This document shows, piece by piece, positions 539-53,381 of a DNA stretch of 64,000 nucleotides; positions within the stretch are counted from its first letter, which is position 1; every line of letters starts with the position of its first letter. The notes under the pieces were generated by a model. It saw only the letters and a list, made by a program, of their open reading frames with translations, was not told where the DNA came from and made no database searches. The position numbers and the translations under genes are program-made. Source of the DNA: Asterias amurensis (Eukaryota; Echinodermata; Asteroidea; Forcipulatida; Asteriidae); assembly GCF_032118995.1 (NCBI RefSeq), contig NC_092649.1:15770332-15834331 (forward strand), given 5' to 3'.

Positions 539-687
539 CACACATTTTCAAGATATTCCAATTGCCATTTGAGGAGGAGAAGAAGAGTTGGGACAGGATT
601 GTACTGAAGCTGAATGTCAAGATTCGAGCGGTGAAGAACAACAAATACAAACTCCCTGAGGAGCTTAAAGTCAAATTAGTGCAGTGA
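539..687 (+). CDS. Terminal coding exon of an unidentified gene
   Basis: A pyrimidine-rich tract ending in TTTTTCAG precedes an open frame of 48 codons closed by TGA at 685-687. The exon begins with two bases completing a codon from an upstream exon outside the window. The peptide is charged and lysine-rich: it starts HIFKIFQLPFEEEKKSW, has a basic middle and ends LPEELKVKLVQ. I do not recognise the family. It does not match the expected C-terminus of BBS2, which would be on the other strand. Support is the acceptor, codon-like composition and a poly(A) signal about 370 bases downstream. It could still be a spurious exon. Confidence 0.5.
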
Positions 688-1155: not shown

Positions 1156-1676
1156 GATATCCTGGTGGGATACGTTGGGATCCCATCGGGATCCCGATCA
1201 GTATCCCGTCGGGACATTTTGCCGGGATCCCGACCTATCCCGTCGGGATCCCGATGGGATAGGTCGGGATCCCGACAAAATATCCCGACGGGATAGGTCA
1301 GGATCCCAGTCATTATCCCGACGGTATCCCGACGGTATCCCGATCAGTTTCCCGTCGGGATACGTCTGGATACTGACCGGGATCCCGACCTATCCCGTCG
1401 GGATATTTTGTCGGGATCCCGGCGGGATAGGTCGGGATCCCAACCAATCCCATCGGGATCCCGTTCAGTATCCCGTCGGGATAATGACTGGGATCCCGAC
1501 CTATCCCGTCGGGATATTTTGTCGGGATCCCGACCTATCCCGTCGGGATCCCGACGGGATAGGTCGGGATCCCGACAAAATATCCCGGTGGGATAGGTCG
1601 GGATCCCGATCAGTATCCCAACGGGATTCCCGACCTATCCCACCGGGATATTGGTCGGGATCCCGACCACATTTTT
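1156..1676. repeat. GC-rich array of self-complementary words
   Basis: The stretch is built almost entirely from GGGATCCC (a perfect palindrome), CCCGTCGGGAT and CCTATCCCGTC in both orientations, with occasional inserts reading ATATTTTGTC. Because the words are their own near reverse complements, both strands read alike. A 215-codon frame opens at 1073 and runs through the array to 1720, giving RDPDLSRRDPDG-like repeats. The - strand also encodes a similar peptide, so the frame is best seen as a by-product of a period compatible with three. It borders the satellite directly on its right. Confidence 0.85.
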
Positions 1677-4600
1677 TAAGGGGATGCCGGCATAGGTCGA
1701 TTTTTCAGATTCGGGGGTGAACAAAATTTCTGTGATTTTATGCTTTCAAATGATACAAAAGATACTACTGAAGACATTTTATCAGTGCGGACTGGGTATA
1801 TAAGCGAAAGTTTGAGATTTTTAAAGAATTTTGTGCGTTTGAGTTTTTTGGTAAAAAATCCCAAAAAAATCTGTGATGCCGACATGGGTCGATTTTTCAG
1901 ATTCGGGGTGAACAAAGTTTCTGTGATTTTATGCTTTCAAATGATACAGAAGATACTACTGAAGACATTTTATCAGTGCGGACTGGGTATATAAGCGAAA
2001 GTTTGAGATTTTTTAAGAATATTGTGAGTTTGAGTTTTTGGTCAAAAATCCAAAAAAATCTGTGATGCCGGCATGGGTCGGTTTTTCAGATTTGGGGTTA
2101 ACAAAATTTGTATGATTTTATGCATTCAAATGATACAGAAGATACCACTGAAGATATTTTATCAGGGCGGACTGGGTATATAAGCGAAAGTTTGAGATTT
2201 TTAAAGAATTTTGTGAGTTTGAGTTTTTTGTCAAAAATCCGAAAAGATCTGTGATGCCGGCATGGGTCGATTTTTCAGATTTGGTGTAAAAATACTTTCT
2301 GTGATTTTATGCTTTCAAATGATACAGAAGATACTAATAAAGACATTTTATCAGTGCGGACTGGGTATATAAGGGAAAGTTTGAGATTTTTAAAGAATGT
2401 TGTGAGGTTGTGTTTTTGGTCAAAAATCCCCAAAAATCTGTGATGCCGGCATGGGTCGATTTTACAGATTCGAGGTGAACAAAATTTCTGTGATTTTATG
2501 CTTTCAAATGATACAGAAGATACTACTGAAGACATTTTATCAGTGCGGACTGGGTATATAAGCGAAAGTTTGAGATTTATAAAGAATTTTGTGAGTTTGT
2601 GTTTTTGGTCAAAAATCCCAAAAAATCTGTAATGCCGGCATGGGTCGATTTTTCAGATTCGGGGTGAACAAAATTTCTGTGATTTTATGCTTTCAAATGA
2701 TACAGAAGATACTACTGAAGACATTTTATCAGTGCGGACTGGGTATATAAGAGAAAGTTTGAGATTTTGAAAGAATTTTGTGAGTATGTGTTTTTGGTCA
2801 AAAATCCAAAAAAAAATATCTGTGATGCCGGCATGGGTTGATTTTTCAGATTTGGGGTGAACAAAAATTCTGTGATTTTATGCTTTCAAATGATACAGAA
2901 GATACTACTGAAGACATTTTGTCAGTGCGGACTGGGTATATAAGCGAAAATTTGAGATTTTCAAAGAATTTTGTGAGTATGTGTTTTTGGTAAAAAATCC
3001 CCAAAAAATCTGTGATGCCGGCATGGGTCGATTTTTCTGATTTGGGGTAAAAATATTTTCTGTTATTTTATGCTTTCAAATGATACAGAAGATACTACTA
3101 AAGACATTTTATCAGTGCGGACTGGGTATATAAGCGAAAGTTTGAGATTTTTAAATAATTTTGTGAGTTTGAGTTTTTGGTCAAAAATCCCAAAAAATCT
3201 GTGATGCCGGCATGGGTCAATTTTTCAGATTTTGGGTGAACAAAATTTCTGTGATTTTATGCTTTCAAATGATACAGAAGATACTACTAAAGACATTTTA
3301 TCAGTGCGGACTGGGTGTATAAGCGAAAGTTTGAGATTTTTAAAGAATTTTGTAAGTTTGTGTTTTTGGTCAAAAATCCAAAAAAAATCTGTGATGCCGG
3401 CATGGGTCGATTTTATGCTTTCAAATGATACAGAAGATACTACTAAAGACATTTTATCAGTGCGGACTGGGTATATAAGCGAAAGTTTGAGATTTATAAA
3501 GAATTTTGTGAGTTTGAGTTTTTGGTCAAAAATCCCAAAAAATCTGTGATGCCGGCATGGGTCGATTTTTCAGATTCGTGGTGAACAAAAATTCTGTGAT
3601 TTTATGCTTTCAAATGATACAGAAGATACTACTAAAGACATTTTATCAGTGCGGACTGGGTAAATTAGCAAAAGTTTGAGATTTTTAAAGAATTTTGTGA
3701 GTTTGAGTTTTTGGTCAAAAAAACAAAAACATCTGTGATGCCGGCATGGGTCGATTTTTCAGATTTGGGGTGAAAATATTTTCTGTGATTTTATGCTTTC
3801 AAATGATACAGAAGATACTACTGAAGATATTTTATCCGTGCGGACTGGATATAAAAGCGAAAGTTTGAGATTTTTAAAGAATTTTGTGAGTTTGAGTTTT
3901 TGGTCAAAAAACCAAAAAAATCTGTGATGCCGGCATGGGTCAATTTTTCAGATTCAGGGTAAACAAAATTTCTGTGATTTTATGCTTTCAAATGATACAG
4001 AAGATACTACCAAAGATATTTTATCAGTGCGGACTGGGTATATAAGCGAAAGTTTGAGATTTTAAAAGAGTTTTGTGAGTTTGTGTTTTTGGTCAAAAAT
4101 CCCAAAAAATCTGTGATGCCGGCATGGGTCGATTTTTCAGATTTGGGGTGAAAACATTTTCTGTGATTTTATGCTTTCAAATGATACAGAAGATACTACT
4201 GAAGACATTTTATCAGTGCGGACTGGGTATATAAGCGAAAGTTTGAGACTATTAAAGAATTTTGTGAGTATGTGTTTTTGGTCAAAAATCAAAAAAAAAA
4301 TCTGTGATGCCAGCATGGGTCGGTTTTTCAGATTCGGGGTGAACAAAATTTCTGTGATTTTATGCTTTCAAATGATACAGAAGATACTACTGAAGACATT
4401 TTATCAGTGCGAACTGGGTAAATTAGCGAAAGTTTGAGATTTTTTAAGAATTTTGTGAGTTTGAGTTTTTGGTCAAAAATCCCAAAAAATCTGTGATGCC
4501 GGCATGGGTTGATTTTTCAGATTTGGGGTGAAAACATTTTCTGTGATTTGATGCTTTCAAATGATACAGAAGATACTACCAAAGACATTTTATCAGTGCA

Positions 4601-7600
4601 GACTGGGTATATAAGCGAAAGTTTGAGATTTTTAAAGAATTTTGTGAGTTTGAGTTTTTGGTCAAAAATCCAAAAAAATCTGTGATGCCGGCATGGGTCG
4701 ATTTTTCAGATTTGGGGTGAACAAAATTTCTGTGATTTTATGCTTTCAAATGATACAGAAGATACTACTGAAGATATTTTATCAGTGTGGACTGGGTATA
4801 TAAGGGAAAGTTTGAGATTTATAAAGAATTTTGTGAGGTTGTGTTTTTGGTCAAAAATCCCCAAAAATCTGTGATGCCGGCATGGGTCGATTTTTCAGAT
4901 TCGGGGTGAACAAAATTTCTGTGATTTTTGCTTTCAAATGATACAGAAGATACTACCAAAGATATTTTATCAGTGCGGACTGGGTATAAAAGCGAAAGTT
5001 TGAGATTTTTAAAGAATTTTGTGAGTTTGTGTTTTTGGTCAAAAATCCAAAAATATCTGTGATGCCGGCATGGGTCGATTTTTCAGATTTGGGGTGAAAA
5101 CATTTTCTGTGATTTTATGCTTTCAAATGATACAGAAGATACTACCAAAGACATTTTATCAGTGCGGACTAGGTATATAAGCGAAAGTTTGAGATTTTTA
5201 AAGAATTTTGTGAGTTTTTGTTTTTGGTCAAAAATCCAAAAAAAATTGTGATGCCGGCATGGGTCGATTTTTCAGATTTGGGGTGAAAACATTTTCTGTG
5301 ATTTTATGCTTTCAAATGATACAGAAGATACTACTAAAGACAATTTATCAGTGCGTACGGGTATATAAGCGAAAGTTTGAGATTTTTAAAGAATTTTGTG
5401 AGTTTGTGTTTTTGGTCAAAAATTCCAAAAAATCTGTGATGCCGGCATGGGTCGATTTTTCAGATTCGGGGTGAACAAAATTTCTGTGATTTTATGCTTT
5501 CAAATGATACAGAAGATACTACTAAAGACATTTTATCAGTGCGGACTGGGTAAATTAATGAAAGTTTGAGATTTTTAAAGAATTTTGTGAGTTTGAGTTT
5601 TTAGTCAAAAAACCAAAAAAATCTGTGATGCCGGCATGGGTCAATTTTTCAGATTCGGGGTGAACAAAATTTCTGTGATTTTTGCTTTCAAATGATACAG
5701 AAGATACTACCAAAGATATTTTATCAGTGCGGACTGGGTATACAAGCGAAAGTTTGAGATTTTTAAAGAATTTTGTGAGTTTGTGTTTTTGGTCAAAAAT
5801 CCAAAAATATCTGTGATGCCGGCATGGGTCGATTTTTCAGATTTGGGGTGAAAACATTTTCTGTGATTTTATGCTTTCAAATGATACAGAAGATACTACT
5901 GAAGACATTTTATCAGTGCGGGCTGGGTATATAAGCGAAAGTTTGAGATTTTTAAAGAATTTTGTGAGTTTGAGTTTTTGGTCAAAAATCCAAAAAAATC
6001 TGTGATGCCGGCATGGGTCGATTTTTCAGATTTGGGGTGAACAAAATTTCTGTAATTTTATGCTTTCAAATGATACAGAAGATACTTCTAAAGACATTTT
6101 ATCAGTGCGGACTGGGTGTATAGGCGAAAGTTTGAGATTTTTTAAGAATTTTGTGAGTTTGAGTTTTTGGTCAAAAAACCAAAAAAATCTGTCATGCCGC
6201 CATGGGTCGATTTGTCAGATTTGGGGTGAAAATATTTTCTGTGATTTAATGCTTTCAAATGATACAGAAGATACTGCTAAAGACATTTTATCAGTGCAGA
6301 CTGGGTATATAAGCGAAAGTTTGAGATTTTTAAAGAATTTTGTGAGTTTGAGTTTTTGGTAAAAAATCCAAAAAAATCTGTGATGCCGGCATGGGTCGAT
6401 TTTTCAGATTTGGGGTGAACAAAATTTCTGTGATTTTATGCTTTCAAATGATACAGAAGATACTACCAAAGACAATTTATCAGTCCGGACTGGGTATATA
6501 AGCGAAAGTTTGAGATTTATAAAGAATTTTGTGAGTTTGAGTTTTTGGTCAAAAATCCCAAAAAATCTGTGATGCCGGCATGGGTCGATTTTTCAGATTC
6601 GTGGTGAACAAAAATTCTGTGATTTTATGCTTTCAAATGATACAGAAGATACTAATAAAGACATTTTATCAGTGCAGACTGGGTAAATTAGCGAAAGTTT
6701 GAGATTTTTAAAGAATTTTGTGAGTTTGTGTTTTTGGTCAAAAATCCAAAAAAATCTGTGATGCCGGCATGGGTCTGTTTTTCAGATTCGGGGTGAACAA
6801 AATTTCTGTGATTTTATGCTTTCAAATGATACAGAAGATACTACTGAAGACATGTTATCAGTGCGGACTGGGTATATAAGCGAAAGTTTGAGATTTATAA
6901 AGAATTTTGTGAGTATGTGTTTTTGGTCAAAAATCCAAAAAAATCTGTGATGCCGGCATGGGTCGGTTTTTCAGATTCGGGGTGAACAACATTTCTGTGA
7001 TTTTATGCTTTAAAATGATACAGAAGATACTACTGAAGACATTTTATCAGTGCAGACTGGGTATATAAGCGAAAGTTTGAGATTTTTAAAGAATTTTGTG
7101 AGTATGTGTTTTTGGTCAAAAAACCAAAAAAATCTGTGATGCCGGCATGGGTCGATTTGTCAGATTTGGGGTGAAATTATTTTCTGTGATTTTTATGCTT
7201 TCAAATGATACAGAAGATACTACTGCAGACATTTTATCAGTGCGGACTGGGTATATCAGCGAAAGTTTAAGATTTTTAAAGAATTTTGTGAGTTTGAGTT
7301 TTTTTGGAAAAAAAACAAAAAAATATGTGATGCCGGCATGGGTCAATTTTTCAGATTCAGGGTAAACAAAATTTCTGTGATTTTATGCTTTCAAATGATA
7401 CAGAAGATACTACCAAAGATATTTTATCAGTGCGGACTGGGTATATAAGCGAAAGTTTGAGATTTTAAAAGAGTTTTGTGAGTTTGTGTTTTTGGTCAAA
7501 AATCCCAAAAAATCTGTGATGCCGGCATGGGTCGATTTTTCAGATTTGGGGTGAAAACATTTTCTGTGATTTTATGCTTTCAAATGATACAGAAGATACT

Positions 7601-8459
7601 ACTGAAGACATTTTATCAGTGCGGACTGGGTATATAAGCGAAAGTTTGAGACTTTTAAAGAATTTTGTGAGTATGTGTTTTTGGTCAAAAATCAAAAAAA
7701 AAATCTGTGATGCCAGCATGGGTCGGTTTTTCAGATTCGGGGTGAACAAAACTTCTGTGATTTTATGCTTTCAAATGATACAGAAGATACTACTGAAGAC
7801 ATTTTATCAGTGCGGACTGGGTATATAAGCGAAAGTTTGAGATTTTTAAAGAATTTTGTGAGTTTGAGTTTTTGGTCAAAAATCCAAAAAAATCTGTGAT
7901 GCCGGCATGGGTCGATTTTTCAGATTCGGGTGAACAAAATTTCTGTGATTTTATGCTTTCAAATGATACAGAAGATACTACTGAAGACATTTTATCAGTG
8001 CGGACTGGGTATATAAGCGAAAGTTTGAGATTTATAAAGAATTTTGTGAGTTTGAGTTTTTGGTCAAAAATCCCAAAAAATCTGTGATGCCGGCATGGGT
8101 CGATTTTTCAGATTCGGGGTGAACAAAATTTCTGTGATTTTATGCTTTCAAATGATACAGAAGATACTAATAAAGACATTTTATCAGTGCAGACTGGGTA
8201 AATTAGCGAAAGTTTGAGATTTTTAAAGAATTTTGTGAGTTTGAGTTTTTGGTCAAAAATCCCAAAAAATCTGTGATGCCGGCATGGGTCGATTTTTCAG
8301 ATTTGGGGTGAAAACATTTTCTGTGATTTTATGCTTTCAAATGATACAGAAGATACTACTGAAGACATTTTATCAGTGCGGACTGGGTATATAAGCGAAA
8401 GTTTGAGATTTTTAAAGAATTTTGTGAGGTTGAGTTTTTGGTAAAAAATCCAAAAAAAT

Positions 8460-11057
8460 CTGTGATGCCGGCATGGGTCGATTTTTCAGATTTGGGGTGA
8501 ACAAAATTTCTGTGATTTTATGCTTTCAAATGATACAGAAGATACTACTGAAGATATTTTATCAGTGCGGACTGGGTATATAAGCGAAAGTTTGAGATTT
8601 TTAAAGAATTTTGTGAGTATGTGTTTTTGGTCAAAAATCAAAAAAAATCTGTGATGCCGGCATGGGTCGGTTTTTCAGATTCGGGGGTGAACAAAATTTC
8701 TGTGATTTTATGCTTTCAAATGATACAGAAGATACTACTGAAGACATTTTATCAGTGCAGACTGGGTATAAAAGCGAAAGTGTGAGATTTATAAAGAATT
8801 TTGTGAGTTTGAGTTTTTGGTCAAAAATCCAAAAAAATCTGTGATGCCGGCATGGGTCGATTTTTCAGATTCGGGGTGAACAAAATTTCTGTGATTTTAT
8901 GCTTTCAAATGATACAGAAGATACTACCAAAGACATTTTATCAGTGCGGACTGGGTAAATTAGCGAAAGTTTGAGATTTTTGGTCAAAAATCCAAAAAAA
9001 TCTGTGATGCCGGCATGGGTCGATTTTTCAGATTTTGGGTGAAAATATTTTCTGTGATTTTATGCTTTCAAATGATACAGAAGATACTACTGAAGACATT
9101 TTATCAGTGCGGACTGGGTATATAAGCGAAAGTTTGAGATTTTAAAAGAATTTTGTGAGTTTGTGTTTTTGGTCAAAAATCCCAAAAAATCTGTGATGCC
9201 GGCATGGGTCGATTTTTCAGATTTGGGGTGAAAACATTTTCTGTGATTTTATGCTTTCAAATGATACAGAAGATACTACTGAAGACATTTTATCAGAGCG
9301 GACTGGGTATATAAGCGAAAGTTTGAGATTTTTAAAGAATTTTGTGAGTATGTGTTTTGGGTCAAAAATCAAAAAAAAATCTGTGATGCCAGCATGGGTC
9401 GGTTTTTCAGATTCGGGGTGAACAAAATTTCTGTGATTTTATGCTTTCAAATGATACAGAAGATACTACTGAAGACATTTTATCAGTGCGAACTGGGTAT
9501 AAAAGCGAAAGTTTGAGATTTATAAAGAATTTTGTGAGTTTGAGTTTTTGGTCAAAAATCCCAAAAAATCTATGATGCCGGCATGGGTCGATTTTTCAGA
9601 TTTGGGGTGAAAACATTTTCTGTGAATTTATGCTTTCAAATGATACAGAAGATACTACTGAAGACATTTTATCAGTGCGGGCTGGGTATATAAGCGAAAG
9701 TTTGAGATTTTTAAAGAGTTTTGTGAGTTTGAGTTTTTGGTCAAAAATCCAAAAAAATCTGTGATGCCGGCATGGGTCGATTTTTCAGATTTGGGGTGAA
9801 CAAAATTTCTGTGATTTTATGCTTTCAAATGATACAGAAGATACTACTGAAGATATTTTATCAGTGCGGACTGGGTATATAAGCGAAAGTTTGAGATTTT
9901 TAAAGAATTTTGTGAGTATGTGTTTTTGGTCAAAAATCAAAAAAAATCTGTGATGCCGGCATGGGTCGGTTTTTCAGATTCGGGGGTGAACAAAATTTCT
10001 GTGATTTTATGCTTTCAAATGATACAGAAGATACTACTGAAGACATTTTATCAGTGCAGACTGGGTATAAAAGCGAAAGTGTGAGATTTATAAAGAATTT
10101 TGTGAGTTTGAGTTTTTGGTCAAAAATCCAAAAAAATCTGTGATGCCGGCATGGGTCGATTTTTCAGATTCGGGGTGAACAAAATTTCTGTGATTTTATG
10201 CTTTCAAATGATACAGAAGATACTACCAAAGACATTTTATCAGTGCGGACTGGGTAAATTAGCGAAAGTTTGAGATTTTTGGTCAAAAATCCAAAAAAAT
10301 CTGTGATGCCGGCATGGGCGATTTTTCAGATTTTGGGTGAAAATATTTTCTGTGATTTTATGCTTTCAAATGATACAGAAGATACTACTGAAGACATTTT
10401 ATCAGTGCGGACTGGGTATATAAGCGAAAGTTTGAGATTTTAAAAGAATTTTGTGAGTTTGTGTTTTTGGTCAAAAATCCCAAAAAATCTGTGATGCCGG
10501 CATGGGTCGATTTTTCAGATTTGGGGTGAAAACATTTTCTGTGATTTTATGCTTTCAAATGATACAGAAGATACTACTGAAGACATTTTATCAGAGCGGA
10601 CTGGGTATATAAGCGAAAGTTTGAGATTTTTAAAGAATTTTGTGAGTATGTGTTTTGGGTCAAAAATCAAAAAAAAATCTGTGATGCCAGCATGGGTCGG
10701 TTTTTCAGATTCGGGGTGAACAAAATTTCTGTGATTTTATGCTTTCAAATGATACAGAAGATACTACTGAAGACATTTTATCAGTGCGAACTGGGTATAA
10801 AAGCGAAAGTTTGAGATTTATAAAGAATTTTGTGAGTTTGAGTTTTTGGTCAAAAATCCCAAAAAATCTATGATGCCGGCATGGGTCGATTTTTCAGATT
10901 TGGGGTGAAAACATTTTCTGTGAATTTATGCTTTCAAATGATACAGAAGATACTACTGAAGACATTTTATCAGTGCGGGCTGGGTATATAAGCGAAAGTT
11001 TGAGATTTTTAAAGAGTTTTGTGAGTTTGAGTTTTTGGTCAAAAATCAAAAAAAATC
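8460..11057. repeat. Satellite higher-order repeat, two ~1299-bp units
   Basis: About 8460-9758 and 9759-11057 are nearly identical over seven monomers. They share private variants such as TCGGGGGTGA (around 8683 and 9982) and a short monomer lacking the AAAGAATTTTGTGAG segment (near 8975 and 10274). One visible difference is a lost base in the second copy (CATGGGCGATT near 10314). Confidence 0.85.
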
Positions 11058-12595
11058 TGTGATGCCGGCATGGATCGATTTTTCAGATTTGGGGTGAACA
11101 AAATTTTTGTGGTTTTTATGCTTTCAAATGATACAGAAGATACTACTAAAGACATTTGATCAATGCAGACTGGGTAAATTAGCGAAAGTTTGAGATTTTT
11201 AAAGAATTTTGTGAGTTTATGTTTTTGGTCAAAAATCCCCAAAAATCTGTGATGCCAGCAGGGGTCGATTTTTCAGATTCGTGGTGAAAACATTTTCTGT
11301 GATTTGATGCTTTCAAATGATACAGAAGATACTACCAAAGACATTTTATCAGTGCAGACTGGGTATATAAGCGAAAGTTTGAGATTTTTAAAGAATTTTG
11401 TGAGTTTGAGTTTTTGGTCAAAAATCCCAAAAAATCTGTGATGCCGGCATGGGTCGATTTTTCAGATTTGGGGTGAACAAAATTTCTGTGATTTTATGCT
11501 TTCAAATGATACAGAAGATACTACTGAAGACATTTTGTCAGTGCGGGCTGGGTATATAAGCAAAAGTTTGAGATTTTTAAAGAATTTTGTGAGTTTGAGT
11601 TTTTGGTAAAAAATCCAAAAACATCTGTGATGCCGGCATGGGTCGATTTTTCAGATTTGGGGTGAACAAAATTTCTATGATTTTATGCTTACTAATGATA
11701 CAGAAGATACTACCAAAGACATTTTATCAGTGCGGACTGGGTATATAAGCGAAAGTTTGAGATTTTTAAAGAATTTTGTGAGTATGTGTTTTTGGTCAAA
11801 AATCAAAAAAAATCTGTGATGCCGGCATGGGTCGGTTTTTCAGATTTTTGGTGAAAATATTTTCTGTGATTTTATGCTTTCAAATGATACAGAAGATACT
11901 ACTGAAGATATTTTATCAGTGTGGACTGGGTATATAAGGGAAAGTTTGAGATTTATAAAGAATTTTGTGAGGTTGTGTTTTTGGTCAAAAATCCCAAAAA
12001 ATCTGTGATGCCGGCATGGGTCGATTTTTCAGATTTGGGGTGAACAAAATTTCTGTGATTTTATGCTTTCAAATGATACAGAAGATACTACTGAAGACAT
12101 GTTATCAGTGCGGGCTGGGTATATAAGCGAAAGTTTGAGATTTTTAAAGAATTTTGTGAGTTTGAGTTTTTGGTCAAAAATCCCAAAAAATCTGTGATGC
12201 CGGCATGGGTCGATTTTTCAGATTTGGGGTGAACAAAATTTCTGTGATTTTATGCTTTCAAATGATACAGAAGATACTACCAAAGACATTTTATCAGTGC
12301 GGACTGGGTATATAAGCGAAAGTTTGAGATTTTTAAAGAATTTTGTGAGTTTGCGTTTTTGGTCAAAAATCAAAAAAAAATTTGTGATGCCGGCATGGGT
12401 CGATTTTTCAGATTTGGGGTGAAAATACTTTCTGTGATTTAATGCTTTCAAATGATACAGAAGATACTACCAAAGACATTTTATCAGTGCGGACTGGGTA
12501 TATAAGCGAAAGTTTGAGATTTTTAAAGAATTTTGTGAGTTTTTGTTTTGGGTAAAAAATCCAAAAAAATCTGTGATGCCGGCATGGGTCGATTT

Positions 12596-15500
12596 TTCAG
12601 ATTTGGGGTGAACAGAATTTCTGTGATTTTATGCTTTCAAATGATACAGAAGATACTACCAAAGACATTTTATCAGTGCGGACTGGGTATATAAGCGAAA
12701 GTTTGAGATTTTTAAAGAATTTTGTGAGTATGTGTTTTTGGTCAAAAATCAAAAAAAATCTGTGATGCCGGCATGGGTCGGTTTTTCAGATTTTTGGTGA
12801 AAATATTTTCTGTGATTTTATGCTTTCAAATGATACAGAAGATACTACTGAAGATATTTTATCAGTGTGGACTGGGTATATAAGGGAAAGTTTGAGATTT
12901 ATAAAGAATTTTGTGAGGTTGTGTTTTTGGTCAAAAATCCCAAAAAATCTGTGATGCCGGCATGGGTCGATTTTTCAGATTTGGGGTGAACAAAATTTCT
13001 GTGGTTTTTAAGCTTTCAAATGATACAGAAGATACTACTAAAGACATTTTATCAGTGTAGACTGGGTATATAAGCGAAAGTTTGAGATTTTTAAAGAATT
13101 TTGTGAGTTTGAGTTTTTGGTCAAAAAACCCCCAAAAATCTGTGATGCCGGCATGGGTCGATTTTTCAGATTTGGGGTGAACAAAATTTCTGTGATTTTA
13201 TGCTTTCAAATGATACAGAAGATACTACTGAAGACATGTTATCAGTGCGGGCTGGGTATATAAGCGAAAGTTTGAGATTTTTAAAGAATTTTGTGAGTTT
13301 GAGTTTTTGGTCAAAAATCCCAAAAAATCTGTGATGCCGGCATGGGTCGATTTTTCAGATTTGGGGTGAACAAAATTTCTGTGATTTTATGCTTTCAAAT
13401 GATACAGAAGATACTACCAAAGACATTTTATCAGTGCGGACTGGGTATATAAGCGAAAGTTTGAGATTTTTAAAGAATTTTGTGAGTTTGCGTTTTTGGT
13501 CAAAAATCAAAAAAAAATTGTGATGCCGGCATGGGTCGATTTTTCAGATTTGGGGTGAACAAAATTTCTGTGATTTTATGCTTTCAAATGATACAGAAGA
13601 TACTACTGAAGACATGTTATCAGTGCGGGCTGGGTATATAAGCGAAAGTTTGAGATTTTTAAAGAATTTTGTGAGTTTGAGTTTTTGGTCAAAAATCCCC
13701 AAAAATCTGTGATGCCGGCATGGGTCGATTTTTCAGATTTGGGGTGAACAAAATTTCTGTGATTTTATGCTTTCAAATGATACAGAAGATACTACCAAAG
13801 ACATTTTATCAGTGCGGACTGGGTATATAAGCGAAAGTTTGAGATTTTTAAAGAATTTTGTGAGTTTGCGTTTTTGGTCAAAAATCAAAAAAAAATTGTG
13901 ATGCCGGCATGGGTCGATTTTTCAGATTTGGGGTGAAAATACTTTCTGTGATTTAATGCTTTCAAATGATACAGAAGATACTACCAAAGACATTTTATCA
14001 GTGCAGACTGGGTATATAAGCGAAAGTTTGAGATTTTTAAAGAATTTTGTGAGTTTTTGTTTTTGTTTAAAAATCCCCAAAAATCTGTGATGCCGGCATG
14101 GGTCGATTTTTCAGATTCGGGTGAATAAAATTTCTGTGATTTTATGCTTTCAAATGATACAGAAGATCCTACCAAAGACATTTGGTCAGTGCGGACTGGG
14201 TATATAAGCGAAAGTTTGAGATTTTTAAAGAATTTTGTGAGTTTGTGTTTTTGGTCAAAAATCCAAAAAAATCTGTGATGCCAGCATGGGTCGATATTTC
14301 AGATTTGGAGTGAAAAAAAAAATTCTGTGATTTTATGCTTTCAAATGATACAGGAGATACTACTGAATACATTTTATCAGTGCGGACTGGGTAAATTAGC
14401 AAAAGTTTGAGATTTGTAAAGAATTTTGTGAGTTTGTGTTTATGGTCAAAAATCCAAAAATAATTGTGATGCCGCGATTTTTCAGATTTGGGGTGAACAG
14501 AATTTCTGTGATTTTATGCTTTCAAATGATACAGAAGATACTACCAAAGACATTTTATCAGTGCGGACTGGGTATATAAGCGAAAGTTTGAGATTTTTAA
14601 AGAATTTTGTGAGTATGTGTTTTTGGTCAAAAATCAAAAAAAATCTGTGATGCCGGCATGGGTCGGTTTTTCAGATTTTTGGTGAAAATATTTTCTGTGA
14701 TTTTATGCTTTCAAATGATACAGAAGATACTACTGAAGATATTTTATCAGTGTGGACTGGGTATATAAGCAAAAGTTTGAGATTTATAAAGAATTTTGTG
14801 AGGTTGTGTTTTTGGTCAAAAATCCCAAAAAATCTGTGATGCCGGCATGGGTCGATTTTTCAGATTTGGGGTGAACAAAATTTCTGTGGTTTTTAAGCTT
14901 TCAAATGATACAGAAGATACTACTAAAGACATTTTATCAGTGTAGACTGGGTATATAAGCGAAAGTTTGAGATTTTTAAAGAATTTTGTGAGTTTGAGTT
15001 TTTGGTCAAAAAACCCCCAAAAATCTGTGATGCCGGCATGGGTCGATTTTTCAGATTTGGGGTGAACAAAATTTCTGTGATTTTATGCTTTCAAATGATA
15101 CAGAAGATACTACTGAAGACATGTTATCAGTGCGGGCTGGGTATATAAGCGAAAGTTTGAGATTTTTAAAGAATTTTGTGAGTTTGAGTTTTTGGTCAAA
15201 AATCCCAAAAAATCTGTGATGCCGGCATGGGTCGATTTTTCAGATTTGGGGTGAACAAAATTTCTGTGATTTTATGCTTTCAAATGATACAGAAGATACT
15301 ACCAAAGACATTTTATCAGTGCGGACTGGGTATATAAGCGAAAGTTTGAGATTTTTAAAGAATTTTGTGAGTTTGCGTTTTTGGTCAAAAATAAAAAAAA
15401 AATTGTGATGCCGGCATGGGTCGATTTTTCAGATTTGGGGTGAACAAAATTTCTGTGATTTTATGCTTTCAAATGATACAGAAGATACTACTGAAGACAT

Positions 15501-16364
15501 GTTATCAGTGCGGGCTGGGTATATAAGCGAAAGTTTGAGATTTTTAAAGAATTTTGTGAGTTTGAGTTTTTGGTCAAAAATCCCCAAAAATCTGTGATGC
15601 CGGCATGGGTCGATTTTTCAGATTTGGGGTGAACAAAATTTCTGTGATTTTATGCTTTCAAATGATACAGAAGATACTACCAAAGACATTTTATCAGTGC
15701 GGACTGGGTATATAAGCGAAAGTTTGAGATTTTTAAAGAATTTTGTGAGTTTGCGTTTTTGGTCAAAAATCAAAAAAAAATTGTGATGCCGGCATGGGTC
15801 GATTTTTCAGATTTGGGGTGAAAATACTTTCTGTGATTTAATGCTTTCAAATGATACAGAAGATACTACCAAAGACATTTTATCAGTGCAGACTGGGTAT
15901 ATAAGCGAAAGTTTGAGATTTTTAAAGAATTTTGTGAGTTTTTGTTTTTGTTTAAAAATCCCCAAAAATCTGTGATGCCGGCATGGGTCGATTTTTCAGA
16001 TTCGGGTGAATAAAATTTCTGTGATTTTATGCTTTCAAATGATACAGAAGATCCTACCAAAGACATTTGGTCAGTGCGGACTGGGTATATAAGCGAAAGT
16101 TTGAGATTTTTAAAGAATTTTGTGAGTTTGTGTTTTTGGTCAAAAATCCAAAAAAATCTGTGATGCCAGCATGGGTCGATATTTCAGATTTGGAGTGAAA
16201 AAAAAAATTCTGTGATTTTATGCTTTCAAATGATACAGGAGATACTACTGAATACATTTTATCAGTGCGGACTGGGTAAATTAGCAAAAGTTTGAGATTT
16301 GTAAAGAATTTTGTGAGTTTGTGTTTATGGTCAAAAATCCAAAAATAATTGTGATGCCGCGATT
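12596..16364. repeat. Satellite higher-order repeat, two ~1885-bp units
   Basis: About 12596-14480 and 14481-16364 repeat with a constant offset of 1885 bp (ten monomers). Shared private variants include GGTGAACAGAATTTC (12611 and 14496), GATCCTACCAAAGACATTTGG and the truncated GATGCCGCGATTTTTC near 14471 and 16356. The match indicates a recent tandem duplication of a ten-monomer block. Confidence 0.85.
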
Positions 16365-16910
16365 TTTCAGATTCGGGGTGAAAAAATTTCTGTGATTTTA
16401 TGCTTTCATGTCTATTATACAAAAGATACTACTGAAGACATTTTGGCAGTGCGGACTGGGTAAACTAGCGAAAGTTTGAGATTTTTAAAGAATTTTGTGA
16501 ATTTGTGTTTTTGGTAAAAGTTCAAAAAAAATCAGTGATGCCGGCATGGGTCGATTTTTCAGATTTGGGGAGAAAAAGTTTTTGTTGATTTTATGCTTTC
16601 AAATGATACAAAAGATACTACTAAAGACATTTCATCAGTGCGGACTGGGTATCCTCGCAAAACTTTGAGAGTTATTGTTAATTTTCTGAGTTTGGGTTTT
16701 TGGTCAAAAATCCCCCAAAGGGGTGATTCAGGCATGGGTCATGTTTCAGATTTTGGGTGAATCAACTTTCGGTGATTTTATGCTTTCAAATGATACAGAA
16801 CAGACGACTACTGAAGACATTTTGTCATTGCGGACTAGGCATATAAGCAAGAATTCGAGATTTTTTGAGAATTTTTTTTTTTTACTATCAACCATTGCTC
16901 GTTACCACTT

Positions 16911-17419
16911 CTACTTGTAAACTCCGTAGGGTCCATAAGACAGGACGTTAAGCCGAGTAAGTTGTATGCTAACAACTGTTTTGATTAAGAACCAATAGTA
17001 TCCAGTGCCTTTAAAGCCATTATACACTTTCGGTACAAAAAAAAAAGAGTTAAAAGATTTACAAATAATTTACAGGGTTTACAGAAGGTAATGGTGAAAG
17101 ACTTCTCTTGAAATATTGTTCCATGAAATGCTTTACTTTTTGAGAAAACATTAAAACAATATCAATTCTTGATAGCGAGAATTACGGATTTATTTTAAAC
17201 ACATGTCATGACACAGCGAAACGCGCGGAAACAAGAGTGGGTTTTCCCGTTATTTTCTCCCGATTCTGATGACCGATCGAGCCTAAATTTTCACAGGTTT
17301 GTTTTTTTATATATTAGTTGTGATACACCAAGTGTGGGACTTGGACATTACTGTTTACCGAAAGTGTATAATGGCTTTAAACCAAAACAAAGGTGGGAAA
17401 ATTCCTTTAAAAATCTGAC
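16911..17419. mobile_element. Degraded copy of the GGACACTATTGG inverted-repeat element
   Basis: The stretch between the satellite and BBS2 exon 14 carries pieces of element family B, such as CCAGTGCCTTTAAAGCC near 17006 and TTTTCACAGGTTTG near 17290. It also carries a diverged TTACAGGGTTTACAGAAGGTAATG segment like the foldbacks at 24.6 and 30.0 kb. No BBS2 exon was recognised in it. Confidence 0.5.
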
Positions 17420-20400
17420 CTTTATGAGAACATTGTTGAGTTCCTCCATGTGCATTGGGAAGTCGGCGATGACTTGCAGGTCTTCAATACCAAGGAAATT
17501 ACTAATGGCCTGAATCAGGTCTCCAGCTAGATCCATGTCGTCCGTCTTAATGCAGATCTGATATATACAAAAACCACAAGGGAAACTGACTGAGTTAGTT
17601 TTAAATGACTTGGAGTGGCACAAATTTACTAGAGTGGGATTTCGAACTAGCGACCTCCGGATAGGTGCTGGTGCCCCACCAACTGTGCTTTCTAGCTCTT
17701 TGTTGGGGGTTTCGCTGTTTTGTCAATATATTTATTCTTCGCTCCACCAACTGAGCTATCTGGCTCTATGTTTGGGGTTTACTGATTTTGTCAATAAATC
17801 TATTTTTTTCGGGAGTGTAAGTCAGAAGCCACACAACCGTTCATTGCTGTATAGCCAGGGATCACACCCAAGTTTAGGATACAACCAGGGAAGCGGCAGA
17901 TCGAATACAGCAACACAAACAATAACACTTCATAAACACCTCGAAGAGTCCTTCGTTAGCGCCAATAACAGAATGAATAGGAAATGAGAAAATTAGGAAA
18001 TTAGAAAAAATGTTTGTATTGTATTTGTATTTGCACACATTTATTTCATTGCTGCCCTACATTTAAACTTACACATTTTACAAAGTTTTATAAGTATATT
18101 CAAATTATGAGTAGTTTACAGTATTACTTAGTATCTTAGGATATGAAAGTTTACAATGATTTAGATAGTTATTTATTAGGAAGCTTTTAAAGTCATGTTA
18201 AGTTTTATATGTGAAAGGAAAACCCTCATTTAAAGAAAACCAACAAACCAGGTAGGGACTGAAAACCCAACCCACATGCAAGGCTCTGTCCTGAGCTTGG
18301 GTTAGAACAAAGAGTTATTTATAAGAACTAGAGGGCGCACTGGTGATGCTTCTTGCACAAACGCGATGGGACCGCAAGGAGACACGCGCGTGGCGTGCGT
18401 TGAATATGAAACACACGTTGGAGTTTTGTGTTTATTGAACACTACCCCATGCTGTTTTGTCAACTCACAAAATGGCCGCACAAACACACCTTAAATAAGC
18501 CTTAAATAAACCTCAAAGAAAACAGGACAGGGTTAATTTTAAGTGATTTGGGGTTTAACAAAGACAATTTGTAAGTGGACATTCCAAAAAACAATTGTTG
18601 GCTTCTGTAAATGCCCCCATTGGTTTTCTCTGTATTATTTTCATTTCATTACTCATTTTTGGTCCTTATTAATAATTTTTCTCGTCCAGTTATTAACTAC
18701 TATTCTTGACGGTCTTTGACCTAAATTATTGTACAAATTTTTTTGTCAACAATATGGAAACAAAATTGTTGACTTGATTTTAATTTGAATCCCGACAAAC
18801 TAAAACAGTATAGGTAAAAACCACAATTAATATTCTTTATCCCCGATGTAAATTTAACAGCTCTTATATGGTTGTGGTACCCCCTGCTAGGATTCGAAAC
18901 TGCCTCTAGCTACCGGGCAACCTCGGTAGTCTAGTTGGTAAGACACTGCTCTAGAATTGCAAGGGTCGTGGGTTCGAAACCCACCCAAGTAACATGCCTG
19001 TGATATTTTTTCACAGGACTCTGGGAAAGTACTGAGTATACAGTGCTAACACACATTGGTGTATGGGTAAAAACCAATAAACTAAAACAGGTTTCTCACC
19101 AGTCCATTGGTCTGCATGTTGATAAACACTGGTCCTGAACCACGCAGCGATATGAAGCCAATGTTGAGCTCACCCTTACAGGTAATGTCCTCATTCAACA
19201 AGAAATTCTGATTGACCCACATCAAGACCTGGACAAAAATAAAGAGAGTAATAATATCAAAGTCTTATATAAATATATATGTATATATATATCAAATAAT
19301 AAACCACAAGGGAAACTGACTATATATATATACATTTTTTGTTTTAGATAGATAGATAGATAGATATGTAGGTAGGTATAAACGTTTATTCAATGTTGCA
19401 AATAGTGTATAATACAGGGTGATATTGACAAAATTAATGTAAATATAAAATATATTAAAAGGTGAAACTTTAAACAAAAGGCAACATCTAGGTTCGGGGA
19501 GAAGCACAGCTTTTGTTCCCCAGCCTATGAACAGACAGACCAAAAAAACAGACAGACATTAAAATTACAGGACAAAACTAACAGGACAAAATTGACAGGT
19601 GTAAGACAGAAAATAAAGCCGTTACAATTTCTACATAAAAAAATAACATCAGAATCTTAGTATAGCACGCATATCTACCAAACAAGATACTCAAAGTGCT
19701 GAGTATATACAAACTTTCAGAATGATAGGTAAATTGCAGTGATGGATTTTGAGACCCAATTATTTAGCACCTTATAAGGGTTTACAAGGTGCTACGGCGC
19801 ATACAGCAGCCACAGCCAGGAACACCGGTACGAACCCCTTCTCTTTTCCAAAAGTGCACTTGGTTCTTATACATGCGTAACACAACACATGGGACCAATG
19901 GCTTTCCGTCCAATCCGAAAGACAAAGCAATAGTTAAGTGTCTTGCTTAAGGACACAAGTGTCACGCACGGCTATAGAACAGATTCAAAACAGCTGGGGT
20001 ATACCATTGGAATTACCTGGATCTGAAATAGTTAATTGTTTGGTGACAACAAAGAGAACATTATCAAATTAACAGGGCCCAATTTCATAAATCTGCTTAG
20101 CGGCCAATTTCATGCTTACAGTGTGATTTCCATTTCATAGCGCTGCTATTACCGTAAGCACAAGATAAGGTATGCTAACCATCGGGTGCAAATCCATGGA
20201 TAATGCACAAGACGGCCGCCTAAAGAGTTTGCTTATCTATGAAATTCGCTTAAGCTTAAGCAAATGTTTTAGCAATAGTTAGCACAAAAAAAGTGTGTAC
20301 AGTTGAGCAGCAATAAGAAATTGGCCCCTGAAATCCAATTTAGAAAAAGTGGATCCAAAATGGTTAGTCATTTGGTGACCATGGACAGGTTTCATACAGC

Positions 20401-23400
20401 TACTTTTAAAGCAGACAAGGGTGCTTTACAATTTTCTGCTAAAAAAATAATAAAAGCAATTCCTGCCATCAGCACCCCTAAGTTATCTTTCATAAATAAA
20501 TAAAAACAATGGCCTTGAAGAAGGTACTTTATCGAGGGGCACTACAGCTCCTTCCAAGAGCTCCGAGCCGCCAAGGTCATCGTGAAATTTGAGGTTTTGG
20601 GGGCAATTGCCACAATTCTACCTGTATCAGTCTCGCGGGAAAAAAAAGGAGGGAGTTATAACAAATCTAAAGTGTGAATTAGTTTTAGAAGAACATACCC
20701 TTTGGATTCTTTCATTGACAGTGAAGGAAACACTGCTCTTTGGTTCTGGTGTATCCTCTGGACATGGCAAGTACATAGAGAAGCGTGGTAGCTGCCTTGT
20801 TAACTCAAACACATGGTATTGGTTGCTGAAAAAAAAAATACATACACATCACAGGTTAAAATAATAGTAAGAAAGTTTTCCTTTTGAATTTTGCCCCAAA
20901 CAAGGGGCTAAAAGCCATTCTTGGTAAGGGGCTACACGAATTGTTTTTATTTAAGTGTAGTATGAAAAATAACTTAGGGTGATGATGGTATGAATTGATA
21001 TTCCTTGTAAAACAGTCCAGGGCCCAATTTCATATCGCTGCTTAGCGGCCGACTTTGTGCTTACTGCGCGATTTCCATTTCATAGCGCTGCTAATCTTAA
21101 GCACACGAAAAGGCATGCTAACCTTCTGGTGCTTACCGCACGAACATAAATGACATCACAATGCAAATCCATGGTAAACGCGCAATATGGCCGCCAAATT
21201 TTTCTGCTAATCTGTGAAATACGCTTGCACCTTAGCAAATTTGTCTGCTAAAGTAAGCATGAAAATTTGCTTACCTTTAAGCAGCACCATGAAATTGGGC
21301 CCTAATTTTAAGGCGGAGGGATACCTGCATCAGGCAAGGAGTTCAAAAGAGATGCAATATGTAAAGCCATACGTAAAATAAAGCTGTTGGAATGGCTCCA
21401 TGTTCTACATCTCAGCAAATCATGACTGTACGGGTGAGAAGAAGCAGAAAGTCTGGTTTCACACTGAAACATTCTAACAGGAGGAAGTGGGTCGGACAAA
21501 CTTGTGGCTATTTTCACACGAAAATATCTGTTGAAAAGACAGAGGCTGGCTACAGACCTAGGGTGGGAAAGAGGTTGTAACCTTGATCATCTACTATAAT
21601 TTTACCATTTACAATAATTTTTGTTTTTCCTTTAAAGAATACTTTTATCCAAAAAAGTAATGTTATTTTTCAAACGATTGTGTCTAAAAAACTGTGCAGG
21701 ACAAATCGTGTATCAAGTGTGCAGGAGTGATACAAATACTATTGAGAGCGACCTCACGCGGTCAAAAATACAATGCTATAAGTAATTACTCCTGCATTAC
21801 CTGGATTTGCCTCCAACGAACGCCTTGATGTGAAGATCAACAGGTACATCTTTGGGAGGAATAACTTGGACTTTGACTGAGTTGCAAAGGTTCTGAGCAC
21901 TGGGATGACTGTTGGTGAGATGGTTGGGAAAAACAAAGGAGAAAAGTTGACTCAGGTTGTCTGCTCTTTCAAGATAATACTCGCATAGTGCTCTAGAGGT
22001 ACTTTGAATCCAAACAAATCATTTGTGACAATATTTCTTAAAGTGATTCATCTTTCACAAGAACACTATTGTATTAAAAATAATAATAATAATATTAAAA
22101 TAAAGACATTTGTAAAGCGCCTAATGCAAAAGCCTCTAAGCGCATAAAGAGAACAATAAAATATACAATGAGTGAAAGATACAATTACAAACGAGCAGAT
22201 TACAAACAAGCAGCTTCAAACAAATGAGTTTTTAAATTGAGTTTATCAAAGCTACCAGACTAGTATGTAGGTTGACTGTCGATCCTATAGAATTTGGTAA
22301 AAACGGTATCCATTTGTTATTGTTGTGGGATAACCAGGGTCCTTGTTGAAACCAAAGGCTTTGACTTTGGCTATGGCTAACAAACACTACATCAAAAGCA
22401 CACACTTTGAAAAAGAACGGACAGAGCCTAAGCTGGAGCCCAAGTCGAAGCTGTTGGTTTCGCAAAGGCCCTCAACAAATTTTCTACAAAGTATTGCATG
22501 AAGCTTTGCATGGTCTGATAATTAGAAAATTTAAGGTGTGGTCTCTTTCAGAGCCAACACTCCCACAAAGGAGATTTACACATGGTTGTACACGCAAGTT
22601 TACTATTTATTGATAGTTTCTTCATAGATTTTCCTCAGTTTGTCTGTTCCCTGATTGAGTTAAGATGTCTGTTTGACTTACACCACATGGCTCTCCCCTT
22701 CAAAGATTCCTTCAGCAAAGATCAGAATGGCTCTGACAACTGTGTCGTTAGTTGTAGACACGGAGAGCTCAACATGGGGCTGAAAACAGAAAGAATCATG
22801 CAAGTTAACATAGACACAATCAACCATGTTGGGATGGATCATGATTTTAAGGTCCCTATATAGAACTCTTTCTTTGTGCTGTACACGGATACAGAGTCCT
22901 AACTATTAGGGATTTTTCTGGGGCGGAAAATTCCAAAGCTTCAGAACTCAAATCTTACCTGCAGGAAGCCACTAATCTCAATAGATTCACATTCTATGGC
23001 GGCATACATTTTTCTGCGGTGGGTTTTGGTCGTCATATATTCCTCAAAGATCCGTCATTTTGGTGAAATAATGCAGCTCCCAACGTTAACAAATTTTTGT
23101 TTTGATCGTACTCTCACAGTGTTGTCTGCTGCCGTGCGCTTTTTGACCTCGGTGTGGGAGCTTTTTTGACCTCAGTGAGGGCGCTTTTTGGCATCAGTGA
23201 GGGCGCTTTTGGGCCTCAGTGAGGGCGCTTTTGGACCTCAGTGAGGGCGCTTTTTGGCCTCAGTGAGGGCGCTTTTGGGCCTCAGTGAGGGCACTTTTGG
23301 GCCTCAGTGAGGGTGCTTTTTGGCATCAGTGAGGGCGCTTTTGGGCCTCAGTGAGGGCGCTTTTGGAGCCCAGTGAGGGTCCTTTTTGAGAGTGTGCTAT

Positions 23401-26400
23401 CACATGCAAGAGGGTCTATACCAGAATAGTGTGATGTTTTATCAAGCTATGACAATGGAAAGCCAGGTGACAGCAACATCTAAGTCTGTTTTCATGTCAA
23501 TCAGGAACATTGGCAGAATACGCAATCACCTCACAAGGGAAGCTGCTGAAACCATTGTCCATGCCTTCATCACATCCAACGTAGATGCATGCAACTCGCT
23601 CTTATACGGAATTAACAATACGCAACTCTCTCGCCTTCAACGATTACAGAATATTGCAGCAAGGATGATCACTTACACCAAGAAAACGAAACACGTCACA
23701 CCAGTGCTAGCCGGCTTGCACTGGCTCCCCATCCAACAAAGGGTTAAATATAAACTGTGCCTCATTATTTTAAAGATCTTAAAGGTGATGCCCCAGCATA
23801 TTTAAGTGATCTTGTGCAGATATACACCCCAGGACATCGTGGCTCACGGTCTACAAAACACAAACTCCTCCAGGAAAACACAACTAAACATGTATGGGGG
23901 TAGAGAAGTTTTCAGAGTGCAGCACCAAAGCTTTGGAACTCCCTCCCGGACACTGTGAAACTCTCCAAATCGCTCAACACATTCAAGAATAGTTTAAAAA
24001 CTCATTTTCATAGAGATGCTTTTTGTTAAGTTTATTTTTTTATTTTGTTGTTTGCTACTTTCATTGCTTATAGTTGTTTTTTTGTGGAGTAGTGCCATGA
24101 GCGCCGTTTGCGGCGGATACTGGCGCTTTATTAAGTGTCCATTATAATAATTATTATTATTATTATTATTAGTGTACTCACAGGTTTGTTAGTATCTCCT
24201 GCAGTCACCATGAGCGACGTCTGGAGCTGTGTGTTAGCCGGAATGATCCCCATCTGGGCCTTGTCTAGCTCACCCATCCCTGATGGCCGCTGGGTCTGCC
24301 CCGCCTTCAAAACAAATCAAGCAATAATGAATAATAATATTCAATATAATGGTAACAAATACTAAACCACAAGGGAAACTGACTGGGTAAATTTGAAATG
24401 ATTTTGGGGTTGAACAAAGACAAATTTACTAGAACAGGATTTGAACCAATGACCTACGGAACAACCTAAAAGAAAACCTCTGATAAAAGTCTGAAATTTC
24501 TCATCCGTGTACTAAAAAGGGTAGCGACGAGTTCTTAAACGGCCGTTTACAACTGGCAGGGTCGTTGCCGTGTGATTATTGCACGGCAACGGCCCTGCAA
24601 GGTTTTAAACGGCAGTTTAAGAATCAGTCACTACTCTTTTATTCCCATTCATAATGCCTTTTTGGTTAAATGATTAGGGTACTTTTTCAAAATGTCCATA
24701 GATTTACATTAAACTTACAGGGTTTGAAGATAATGATAGTGGAAAGCTTCCTTTCAAGTATTACTTACTGAGGTGCTGTAGTTTTTGAGAAATGAGTAAA
24801 CAAATGTCATGAAAATACGTTTGTAAATGATTAAAATAATTTTCGTCTCATGAGACGAAAATTATTTTCATGACATTGTTTTACTCATTTCCCAAAAACT
24901 TAAGCACCTCAACAGGTAATATTTTCAGGGAAGCTTTCTACTATCATTATCTTCAAACTGTGTAAGTTTAGTGTAAATCTGTGAACATTGTGTTTTTTGT
25001 CCTACAAAAGTTACATAGACCCTTTAAAGGCGTAACAAAGTAAGAAACTCTGTGTAAAAACTTATCCGTTTTCCGACGTGCTTGAGCTCTGTACGTCCAT
25101 GTGTTGCATTGTTATGACTTATACGACAGCATTTGGATCCGTTCGTGCGCGTAGTCTTGGTGCAAGACGTTTCTCGTTTTCCTTTCACACACAGTGTGGC
25201 CAACTCACCGACAGCGCCCGCATCGCTAGTAACGAGAAATGTCTTGCAGCAAGACTAGCGCGTAGTATCCGAAAACAACTGGTTATCAACAGAGCTCAAG
25301 CTGGTCATTATCAACTGTTTAAACACCCCCACGTAACACGCTCTCCACCAAAAGGAATAGCGAAACTGTCTGAGGTATTTATGAATACATATAGAAACAC
25401 CTAGGTCCTTTTGAAGTACTTTTAAATCTGAGCTTAAAACATGTTGATGTCTCGGGCCTTTTCTCACTCATTGTAATTATGATCATCACCTTCCATGTAT
25501 AAATTTGATAATTTTTTGTAATTTATTGTATTGTAATATTGTAGGCGGCTTGGGCACTCTATTGGTGGATATGTGCGCATTATAAGTTTTGCAATTATTA
25601 TTATTACAATTATTACCTTTGCATTCTCTTCATAGTTTTTGAGTTCCAGCAGTAGATTCTGTTTCCTCTGGCTGAGCTCTCTGATGGTCTCTTGCTCTAC
25701 GTTGGTATCCATCAGGTTCCCCTTCAGCTCCTGAGAGGCCGGTAAGTAGCCACGTACTGTTAACATTAATTAATCATTCAACTATTATTTTTTAAATCAT
25801 TTATTTTGTGTTCTCTTGCTTTGTTTTCCATGATACGTCTTTTTGCTCTTGACTAAGTTTGTCTGTTTTAGGTACTTCCATTTTTTTGTGCCGTTTTTGT
25901 GAGGACCCAAATGGAAATAAGTCTAAGTTATTCGCTTTTTGGGGCCATCCTTGGATAATTTTGTGCAGTATTTCGATAGATAGATAGGTAGATAAAAAAT
26001 TGCGACCCCCTTACATGCCTGATTATGCCCCAATGCATCTTAGGAATTAAAATTTAGTTACGACAAATGAGGCGCAACTAGGCGATTAGTAAATTTCATT
26101 AGTCGCCCAGCACTAATACCCACCATGCAAAGTTAGCAAATTCTACAAATAAGACTGTATCTCACCTTCTCCTTCGACGGAGCAGCAGATAAGCTCACTG
26201 TGTCCATCCATTCTATAGTCTCCTTCCACAATACCAGCGACTGATGAGGATAGATTATCTTTGAATATCACCTCCCCAGTGCGATCGCTGCGGGCGTCCA
26301 CCTGGTAACAGGAAAACATTTTTTTGTTATAAATAAAACAACTATTTATTTTATGTTAATATGACCATCCTTGTATGATTTCAGAGGATTGCCTCACAAA

Positions 26401-53349: not shown

Positions 53350-53381
<32 letters not shown>

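What the first reader, a model, noticed from the sequence alone, without database searches (positions are those of the whole stretch)
1680..17420. A 15-kb satellite array sits where the last BBS2 introns should be
BBS2 reads cleanly for 600 codons to a donor at 17419, but the C-terminal exons (about 120 codons in the family) are not seen in the 17.4 kb to the left. That stretch is satellite, then a + strand gene's last exon. Either BBS2 spans a centromere-like satellite intron and its last exons lie beyond the window, or the gene was broken by the array, or the assembly joined unrelated arms at the satellite.
Basis: partly seen in the sequence, partly recalled or inferred. Interest (0 to 1): 0.75.

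Follow-up and report, generated by a model that had tools for sequence, protein, structure and literature searches.

The report
Satellite array in starfish BBS2 intron
A starfish gene for a cilium protein appears to have a 15,000-base block of repeated DNA inside one of its last introns, a known kind of oddity rather than a broken gene, although reads spanning the block are still needed to rule out an assembly error.

Summary
The array is real: 81 head-to-tail ~189-bp monomers, one orientation, at 1683-16875. BBS2 on the minus strand is open for exactly 600 codons in 14 exons, ending at a donor next to 17420. The spliced protein is 596/600 identical to Asterias rubens BBS2, which is 720 aa and listed on a 25.66-Mb contig. 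So the window is from Asterias or a very close relative, where the gene is complete. Codons 601-720 were found on neither strand of the window.

The "+ strand gene's last exon" at 541-687 is unsupported: no Pfam hit, no homologue in two searches, an unremarkable codon score. That weakens, without removing, the main objection to the simple reading: a 15-kb satellite in BBS2 intron 14, with the last exons left of the window. A misjoin inside the array cannot be excluded; the window's own assembly did not complete (12 requests). I found no higher-order repeat, no carrier-transposon ends and no gene decay.

Intronic satellites are known (Tribolium TCAST, Drosophila Y genes). This is a new member of a known kind, of modest interest.

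The parts
1683..16875 (+). Satellite array: 81 monomers, consensus 189 bp (51 of 81 are exactly 189 bp), mean pairwise identity 92.4% (gaps left out), all in one orientation
   Evidence: TRF; nhmmer 81 of 81 hits on +; monomer alignment
12590..16373 (+). Recent adjacent block duplication inside the array: 12590-14488 repeated at 14475-16373, 1896 of 1899 identical
   Evidence: shift scan
8075..11106 (+). Second recent adjacent block duplication, shift 1298-1299 bp: 8075-9019 repeated at 9374-10318 (929 of 945 identical) and 9021-9808 at 10319-11106
   Evidence: shift scan; monomers 37-42 and 44-49 identical pair by pair
1160..1682 (.). Palindromic GC-rich minisatellite (units around CGGGATCCCG and ATCCCGTCGGGAT) abutting the left edge of the array
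   Evidence: TRF rows; 53 inverted-repeat pairs in 900-1760, 25 shown, the longest with 131-nt arms; exact forms of four motifs found only between 1187 and 1668
16876..17419 (.). Proximal intron DNA between array and BBS2 exon 14: dispersed-repeat pieces and a TIR element (arms 17010-17035 and 17356-17381, 26/26)
17420..17557 (-). BBS2 exon 14 (last exon in the window), codons 555-600; donor AAG|gtcaga; read-through would add 23 residues and stop
   Evidence: platform-domain match E 0.00032, below Pfam's cut-off on this piece alone
19100..33316 (-). BBS2 exons 1-13: 33200-33316, 31436-31660, 30403-30528, 28348-28488, 27804-27908, 26528-26614, 26166-26301, 25617-25756, 24182-24304, 22682-22779, 21801-21908, 20699-20825, 19100-19228
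   Evidence: spliced model 596/600 identical to P0001; Pfam BBS2_N, BBS2_Mid, BBS2_GAE, BBS2_pf
541..687 (+).

Best explanation
The window holds a functional BBS2 gene of a starfish (Asterias or a very close relative). Its 14th intron begins at 17419 and contains a 15.2-kb satellite array that grew in place by unequal exchange. The pre-mRNA is transcribed through the array, read on the minus strand, and the intron is spliced out; the last exons (codons 601-720) lie left of position 1. Shown: the array, the 600 open codons, a donor, the failure to find the last 120 codons in the window, and a full-length BBS2 in A. rubens. Inferred: that the last exons lie to the left, that the intron is transcribed and spliced, and growth by unequal exchange (from block duplications).
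For: 14 exons with AG/GT borders (required by the script) and no stop give a 600-codon model, 596/600 identical to A. rubens BBS2. That protein is full length (720 aa) and is listed for one contig of 25.66 Mb, so its last 120 codons should be linked to the rest there (linkage inferred). Five of the six orthologues printed go on past this point with V after the K; the sixth, P0009 (553 aa, sea cucumber), stops before it. The donor AAG|gtcaga resembles the other 13, though C at +3 is unique among the 14. Codons 601-720 were not found in the window, as expected if they lie further left. The supposed intervening gene at 541-687 has no support. Array structure looks natural: no higher-order repeat, 92.4% mean identity, two adjacent block duplications, decayed last three monomers at the right edge, and equal similarity within and between the two halves (0.913, 0.916, 0.914, gaps counted, last three monomers left out).
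Against: The 13 introns in the window are 226-1914 bp (median 1189), so an intron of at least 17,419 bp is a strong outlier. The last exons were not seen. The left 1160 bp share no repeat with the right arm, but neither do 8 of 40 equal chunks of the right arm with the rest of it. Around monomer 52 (about 11.4 kb) only 4 of 77 trimer windows have their best partner across the point, against 37 if partners were random; local duplications can explain this, but it is where a join could hide. The + strand ORF does follow an AG and is followed by an AATAAA.
Confidence: 0.72

Rival explanations
1. Assembly misjoin: the right arm (BBS2) and the left arm come from different loci that both carry this satellite, and the assembler joined them inside the array, dropping the BBS2 last exons.
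For: Intron far larger than the other 13. Fewest cross-links between monomer groups around monomer 52 (4 of 77 trimers). Two 1.3- and 1.9-kb block repeats could confuse an assembler. Left arm has no repeat in common with the right.
Against: Monomers differ by about 8% on average, so long accurate reads should resolve the array (general knowledge; how this assembly was made is not known). Mean identity between halves equals that within halves, which two arrays of one homogenised family would also show. A 1160-bp stretch without shared repeats is common here (8 of 40).
Confidence: 0.18
2. Broken or truncated BBS2: the array replaced the last exons, or the window holds a truncated second copy of BBS2. 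Read-through of the donor would give 600 codons plus 23 residues, with an AATAAA on the minus strand at 17189.
For: Codons 601-720 not found in 64 kb. A read-through stop and a poly(A) hexamer exist. 4 of 600 residues differ from A. rubens.
Against: No stop or frameshift in the 14-exon model. AATAAA is a common hexamer in AT-rich DNA (general knowledge). The retained donor suggests splicing to something downstream. Whether a second copy exists was not testable.
Confidence: 0.08
3. The array is the tandem-repeat core of a mobile element (Helitron-like, as in oyster satellites) inserted in the intron. This does not exclude the best explanation.
For: Oyster satellites of nucleosomal length sit inside Helitrons (PMC8268682, passages). 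A different, palindromic repeat abuts the left edge.
Against: No exact direct or inverted match between the two flanks longer than expected (9 nt each; 60 shuffles of the left flank, direct orientation only: mean 8.6, largest 12). One oyster satellite family in such elements averages about six monomers; here there are 81. The TIR element at 17010-17381 has both its ends on the right side of the array.
Confidence: 0.1

Closest known systems
TCAST satellite-like elements in Tribolium castaneum euchromatin (PMC3411249; abstract and passages seen)
   Same: Satellite-derived repeats in introns and near genes in euchromatin (29 of 68 TCAST-like elements, satellite-like or transposon-like, in introns); more divergent than in heterochromatin.
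   Different: The satellite-like ones are partial monomers up to tetramers; here 81 monomers over 15 kb. Whether the starfish satellite also builds heterochromatin is not known.
Drosophila Y-linked kl-3 and kl-5 satellite-rich gigantic introns (PMC6508621; abstract and passages seen)
   Same: A satellite array inside an intron of a gene of cilia or flagella; there the introns are transcribed, here that is inferred.
   Different: Megabases of simple repeats on the repeat-rich Y, genes expressed in spermatocytes; here 15 kb of 189-bp monomers in a stretch with several genes. The cilium link may be coincidence.
Pacific oyster satellitome (PMC8268682; passages seen)
   Same: Marine invertebrate, monomers of 160-180 bp predominate, satellites scattered outside heterochromatin.
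   Different: Many oyster satellites are tied to Helitrons, with short arrays; no element ends found here.
Asterias amurensis genome reports (PMC11090083, PMC10625585; passages seen)
   Same: Same genus; one prints 'satellite (1.80%)' among its repeats.
   Different: The passages seen name no satellite family, no BBS2 and no intronic array.

Membership tests
BBS2 (BBSome subunit 2) | BBS2_N, BBS2_Mid, BBS2_GAE and platform domains in order | tested here: met
   Pfam hits on exon pieces, some below cut-off on a single piece; 596/600 identity to A. rubens BBS2
BBS2 (BBSome subunit 2) | C-terminal part, codons 601-720 (PF23353 and PF23351 are listed for the whole protein P0001; that they lie there is recalled) | tested here: inconclusive
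   Not found in the window, but the gene is cut by the window edge
Satellite DNA array | Long head-to-tail array of similar non-coding monomers | tested here: met
   81 monomers, 92.4% identity, longest open stretch 125 codons in any frame
Intronic satellite | Array lies between two exons of one transcript | tested here: inconclusive
   Upstream exon and donor present; no downstream exon in the window
Centromeric satellite | Higher-order repeats, or CENP-A occupancy | tested here: inconclusive
   Lags 1-15 flat apart from the recent block duplication; many centromeric satellites lack higher-order repeats (recalled); occupancy not testable here
Helitron-borne or transposon-borne satellite | Element ends or target-site duplications flanking the array | tested here: not met
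   No flank match beyond chance; Helitron end signatures were not searched specifically
Satellite-rich gigantic intron (kl-3 type) | Array transcribed with the gene, special RNA-binding factors needed | not testable with these tools
   No transcript data

The most novel reading that the evidence does not exclude
A mid-sized satellite array is fixed in the last part of a housekeeping ciliary gene, and its length controls how much full-length BBS2 (against a form ending just after codon 600, without the C-terminal part) is made, so that array length variation would change ciliary traffic between individuals. The most conserved 24 bp of the monomer (positions 57-80) would be the bound site.
Probability: 0.04. 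Interest if true: 0.65.

Novelty: new member of a known kind. Interest (0 to 1): 0.27.

Why it matters
It is a compact, sequence-resolved case of an animal gene that seems to carry a 15-kb satellite inside an intron without loss of its reading frame, in a group for which my searches listed no satellite paper (only the rows shown). It is also a useful test site: an intron at least nine times longer than the longest other intron seen, whose array can be compared among Asterias species and individuals. If it proves to be a misjoin, it flags a fault in the assembly.

Tried and rejected
Rejected or without result: (a) C-terminal exons hidden in the window on either strand: none found. (b) The + strand 541-687 ORF as a known gene: PDB best E 0.34, Pfam none, protein database none at E<=10 (26 and 10 candidates shared words) for candidate lengths of about 165-525 and 511-1627 aa; proteins outside those lengths were not searched, and only close relatives sharing exact words would be drawn. 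An upstream piece that could be joined to it in frame added no Pfam match. Its codon score (5.1; one frame of the opposite strand scores 3.8) is reached by 10.1% of 1890 overlapping stop-free windows, a null that also contains real exons of the other genes. (c) Higher-order repeat: identity by lag 1-15 is flat (0.923-0.938), the small rise at lag 10 fitting the 1.9-kb duplication. (d) Transposon ends around the array: none beyond chance. (e) Coding array: no long open frame. (f) AA/TT/TA spacing in the array: autocorrelation at lags 8-39 computed without a null, highest at lag 9 (0.167), lowest at 13 (-0.181); nothing built on it. (g) A 29-base piece of the satellite core in viral and prokaryote contigs: 0 exact matches (the tool may leave out the window's own genome), as expected for an animal repeat. 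(h) Conserved core: positions 57-80 are 99.2% conserved (substitutions only); 5000 column permutations give 0.0006 for the best 24-bp window (0.0002 with runs of four or more left out), but a 60-bp window is not unusual (0.41), and monomers are not independent, so this is a lead only. (i) Species: 4 of 600 residues differ from A. rubens, so another individual or a close relative; not resolved.

Papers: no paper in the library holds both 'BBS2' and 'Asterias'. Searches for echinoderm or starfish satellites listed no paper on an Asterias satellite among the 15 of 42 and 12 of 717 rows shown. Further listings were used only to look for papers; I read passages of five.

Full report
What is there. 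Tandem Repeats Finder puts a 189-bp repeat at 1683-16875. A consensus search gives 81 hits, 81 of 81 on the + strand, contiguous from 1683 to 16875 and nowhere else in the 64 kb at E<=1e-5. 51 of 81 monomers are exactly 189 bp; mean pairwise identity is 92.4%, gaps left out. In the 1-kb windows wholly inside the array GC skew is +0.29 to +0.36; in those wholly outside it lies between -0.18 and +0.21. No frame is open for more than 125 codons. On the left the array abuts about 520 bp of a palindromic GC-rich minisatellite.

BBS2. A spliced model of 14 exons runs from 33316 to 17420 on the minus strand and gives exactly 600 codons without a stop; the script allowed only AG/GT borders near each protein match, so canonical borders are by construction. 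It matches Asterias rubens BBS2 (P0001, 720 aa) at 596 of 600 residues; the four differences are at 61, 256, 552 and 554. The best database hit is that protein, named in the listing and placed on a contig of 25,660,236 bases; it shows 85% there, presumably because the query lacked two exons. The next seven hits are at 65-68% (best 120 of 1240 listed). The window is therefore from Asterias or a very near relative (family Asteriidae); the four differences mean it is not the same sequence as that record, and I cannot name the species.

The missing end. Codons 601-720 were not found on either strand of the window. tblastn with the last 125 residues of seven orthologues gave no hit better than E 0.76, while with P0001 each of the 14 exons present was found at E 7e-14 or better. 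Since the true exons should be nearly identical, I take them as absent from this window. That says nothing about the genome beyond the edge.

The supposed + strand gene. The 48-codon ORF at 541-687 follows an AG and has an AATAAA at 1060. But it has no Pfam match, no PDB match better than E 0.34 and no homologue in two database searches that drew candidates of about 165-525 and 511-1627 residues, although that database holds at least the A. rubens BBS2. Its codon score is reached by 10% of 1890 overlapping stop-free windows. It may still be an unannotated, short or very long gene; it is not evidence against a BBS2 intron, since genes can also lie within introns.

How the array grew. There is no higher-order period: identity by lag 1-15 is flat. 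There are two adjacent block duplications: 1899 bp with 1896 identical (12590-14488 to 14475-16373), and a 1298/1299-bp shift over 8075-9808, of which 8075-9019 has 929 of 945 identical. The last three monomers on the right are decayed (0.84, 0.82, 0.67 identity to consensus), and monomers 10, 39, 46, 68 and 78 are also below 0.90. This is what unequal exchange gives. Positions 57-80 of the monomer are more conserved than a random arrangement of columns would give, a lead only.

Intron or misjoin. For the intron: a donor, an open frame, a full-length gene in A. rubens, similar monomers throughout (0.913 and 0.916 within halves, 0.914 between; gaps counted, last three monomers left out). Against it: 13 introns in the window are 226-1914 bp and this one would be at least 17,419 bp; the left 1160 bp share no repeat with the right arm, though 8 of 40 equal chunks of the right arm share none with the rest either; and best-partner links across the array are fewest after monomer 52 among the points tested (4 of 77; 37 expected if partners were random), which local duplication can explain but which does not exclude a join. 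The window's own assembly would settle this; the tool for it did not complete (12 identical requests).

What it is like. Satellite-derived repeats in introns are known: 29 of 68 TCAST-like elements in Tribolium euchromatin (PMC3411249, abstract and passages), and megabase satellite introns in the Drosophila Y genes kl-3 and kl-5 (PMC6508621, abstract and passages). Many oyster satellites are tied to Helitrons (PMC8268682, passages); no element ends were found here. So this is a new member of a known kind, larger than the Tribolium arrays and much smaller than the fly ones. 'Centromere-like' has no support here.

Noticed in passing
31623-32100: A 245-bp tandem duplication (2 copies, 88%) takes in the start of BBS2 exon 2; tblastn finds a second copy of its first 13 residues (12 of 13 identical) at 31863-31901.
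   Followed up: no
1160-1682: Palindromic GC-rich minisatellite made of CGGGATCCCG and ATCCCGTCGGGAT units, with arms up to 131 nt, directly abutting the satellite; exact forms of four motifs not found elsewhere in the window.
   Followed up: partly
63631-63677: Rfam histone 3'-UTR stem-loop on + (35.6 bits, cut-off 34); by eye no histone-like ORF of 60 aa or more nearby; it directly follows CTGATCGAAACGTCGAGTTAAC (once in the window, up to 3 mismatches), perhaps part of a mobile element.
   Followed up: partly
46585-47529: A minus-strand 315-codon open frame rich in Ser/Thr/Glu repeats, part of it encoded by a 15/75-bp minisatellite (46867-47218), no Pfam match; PPP4R2 exons lie to its right at 51460-51699 and 53157-53414, so it may be the PPP4R2 tail.
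   Followed up: partly
36715-38982: Three + strand open frames with ankyrin repeats, with a 37-bp minisatellite (13.7 copies, 98% matches) at 38081-38590 between the second and third.
   Followed up: partly
18920-18991 (+) and 33541-33608 (-): Two tRNA-family matches (40.7 and 41.2 bits), one in BBS2 intron 13 and one just upstream of exon 1; possibly tRNA genes or tRNA-derived repeats.
   Followed up: no
23136-23388: 22-bp minisatellite (about 11 copies) in BBS2 intron 9.
   Followed up: no
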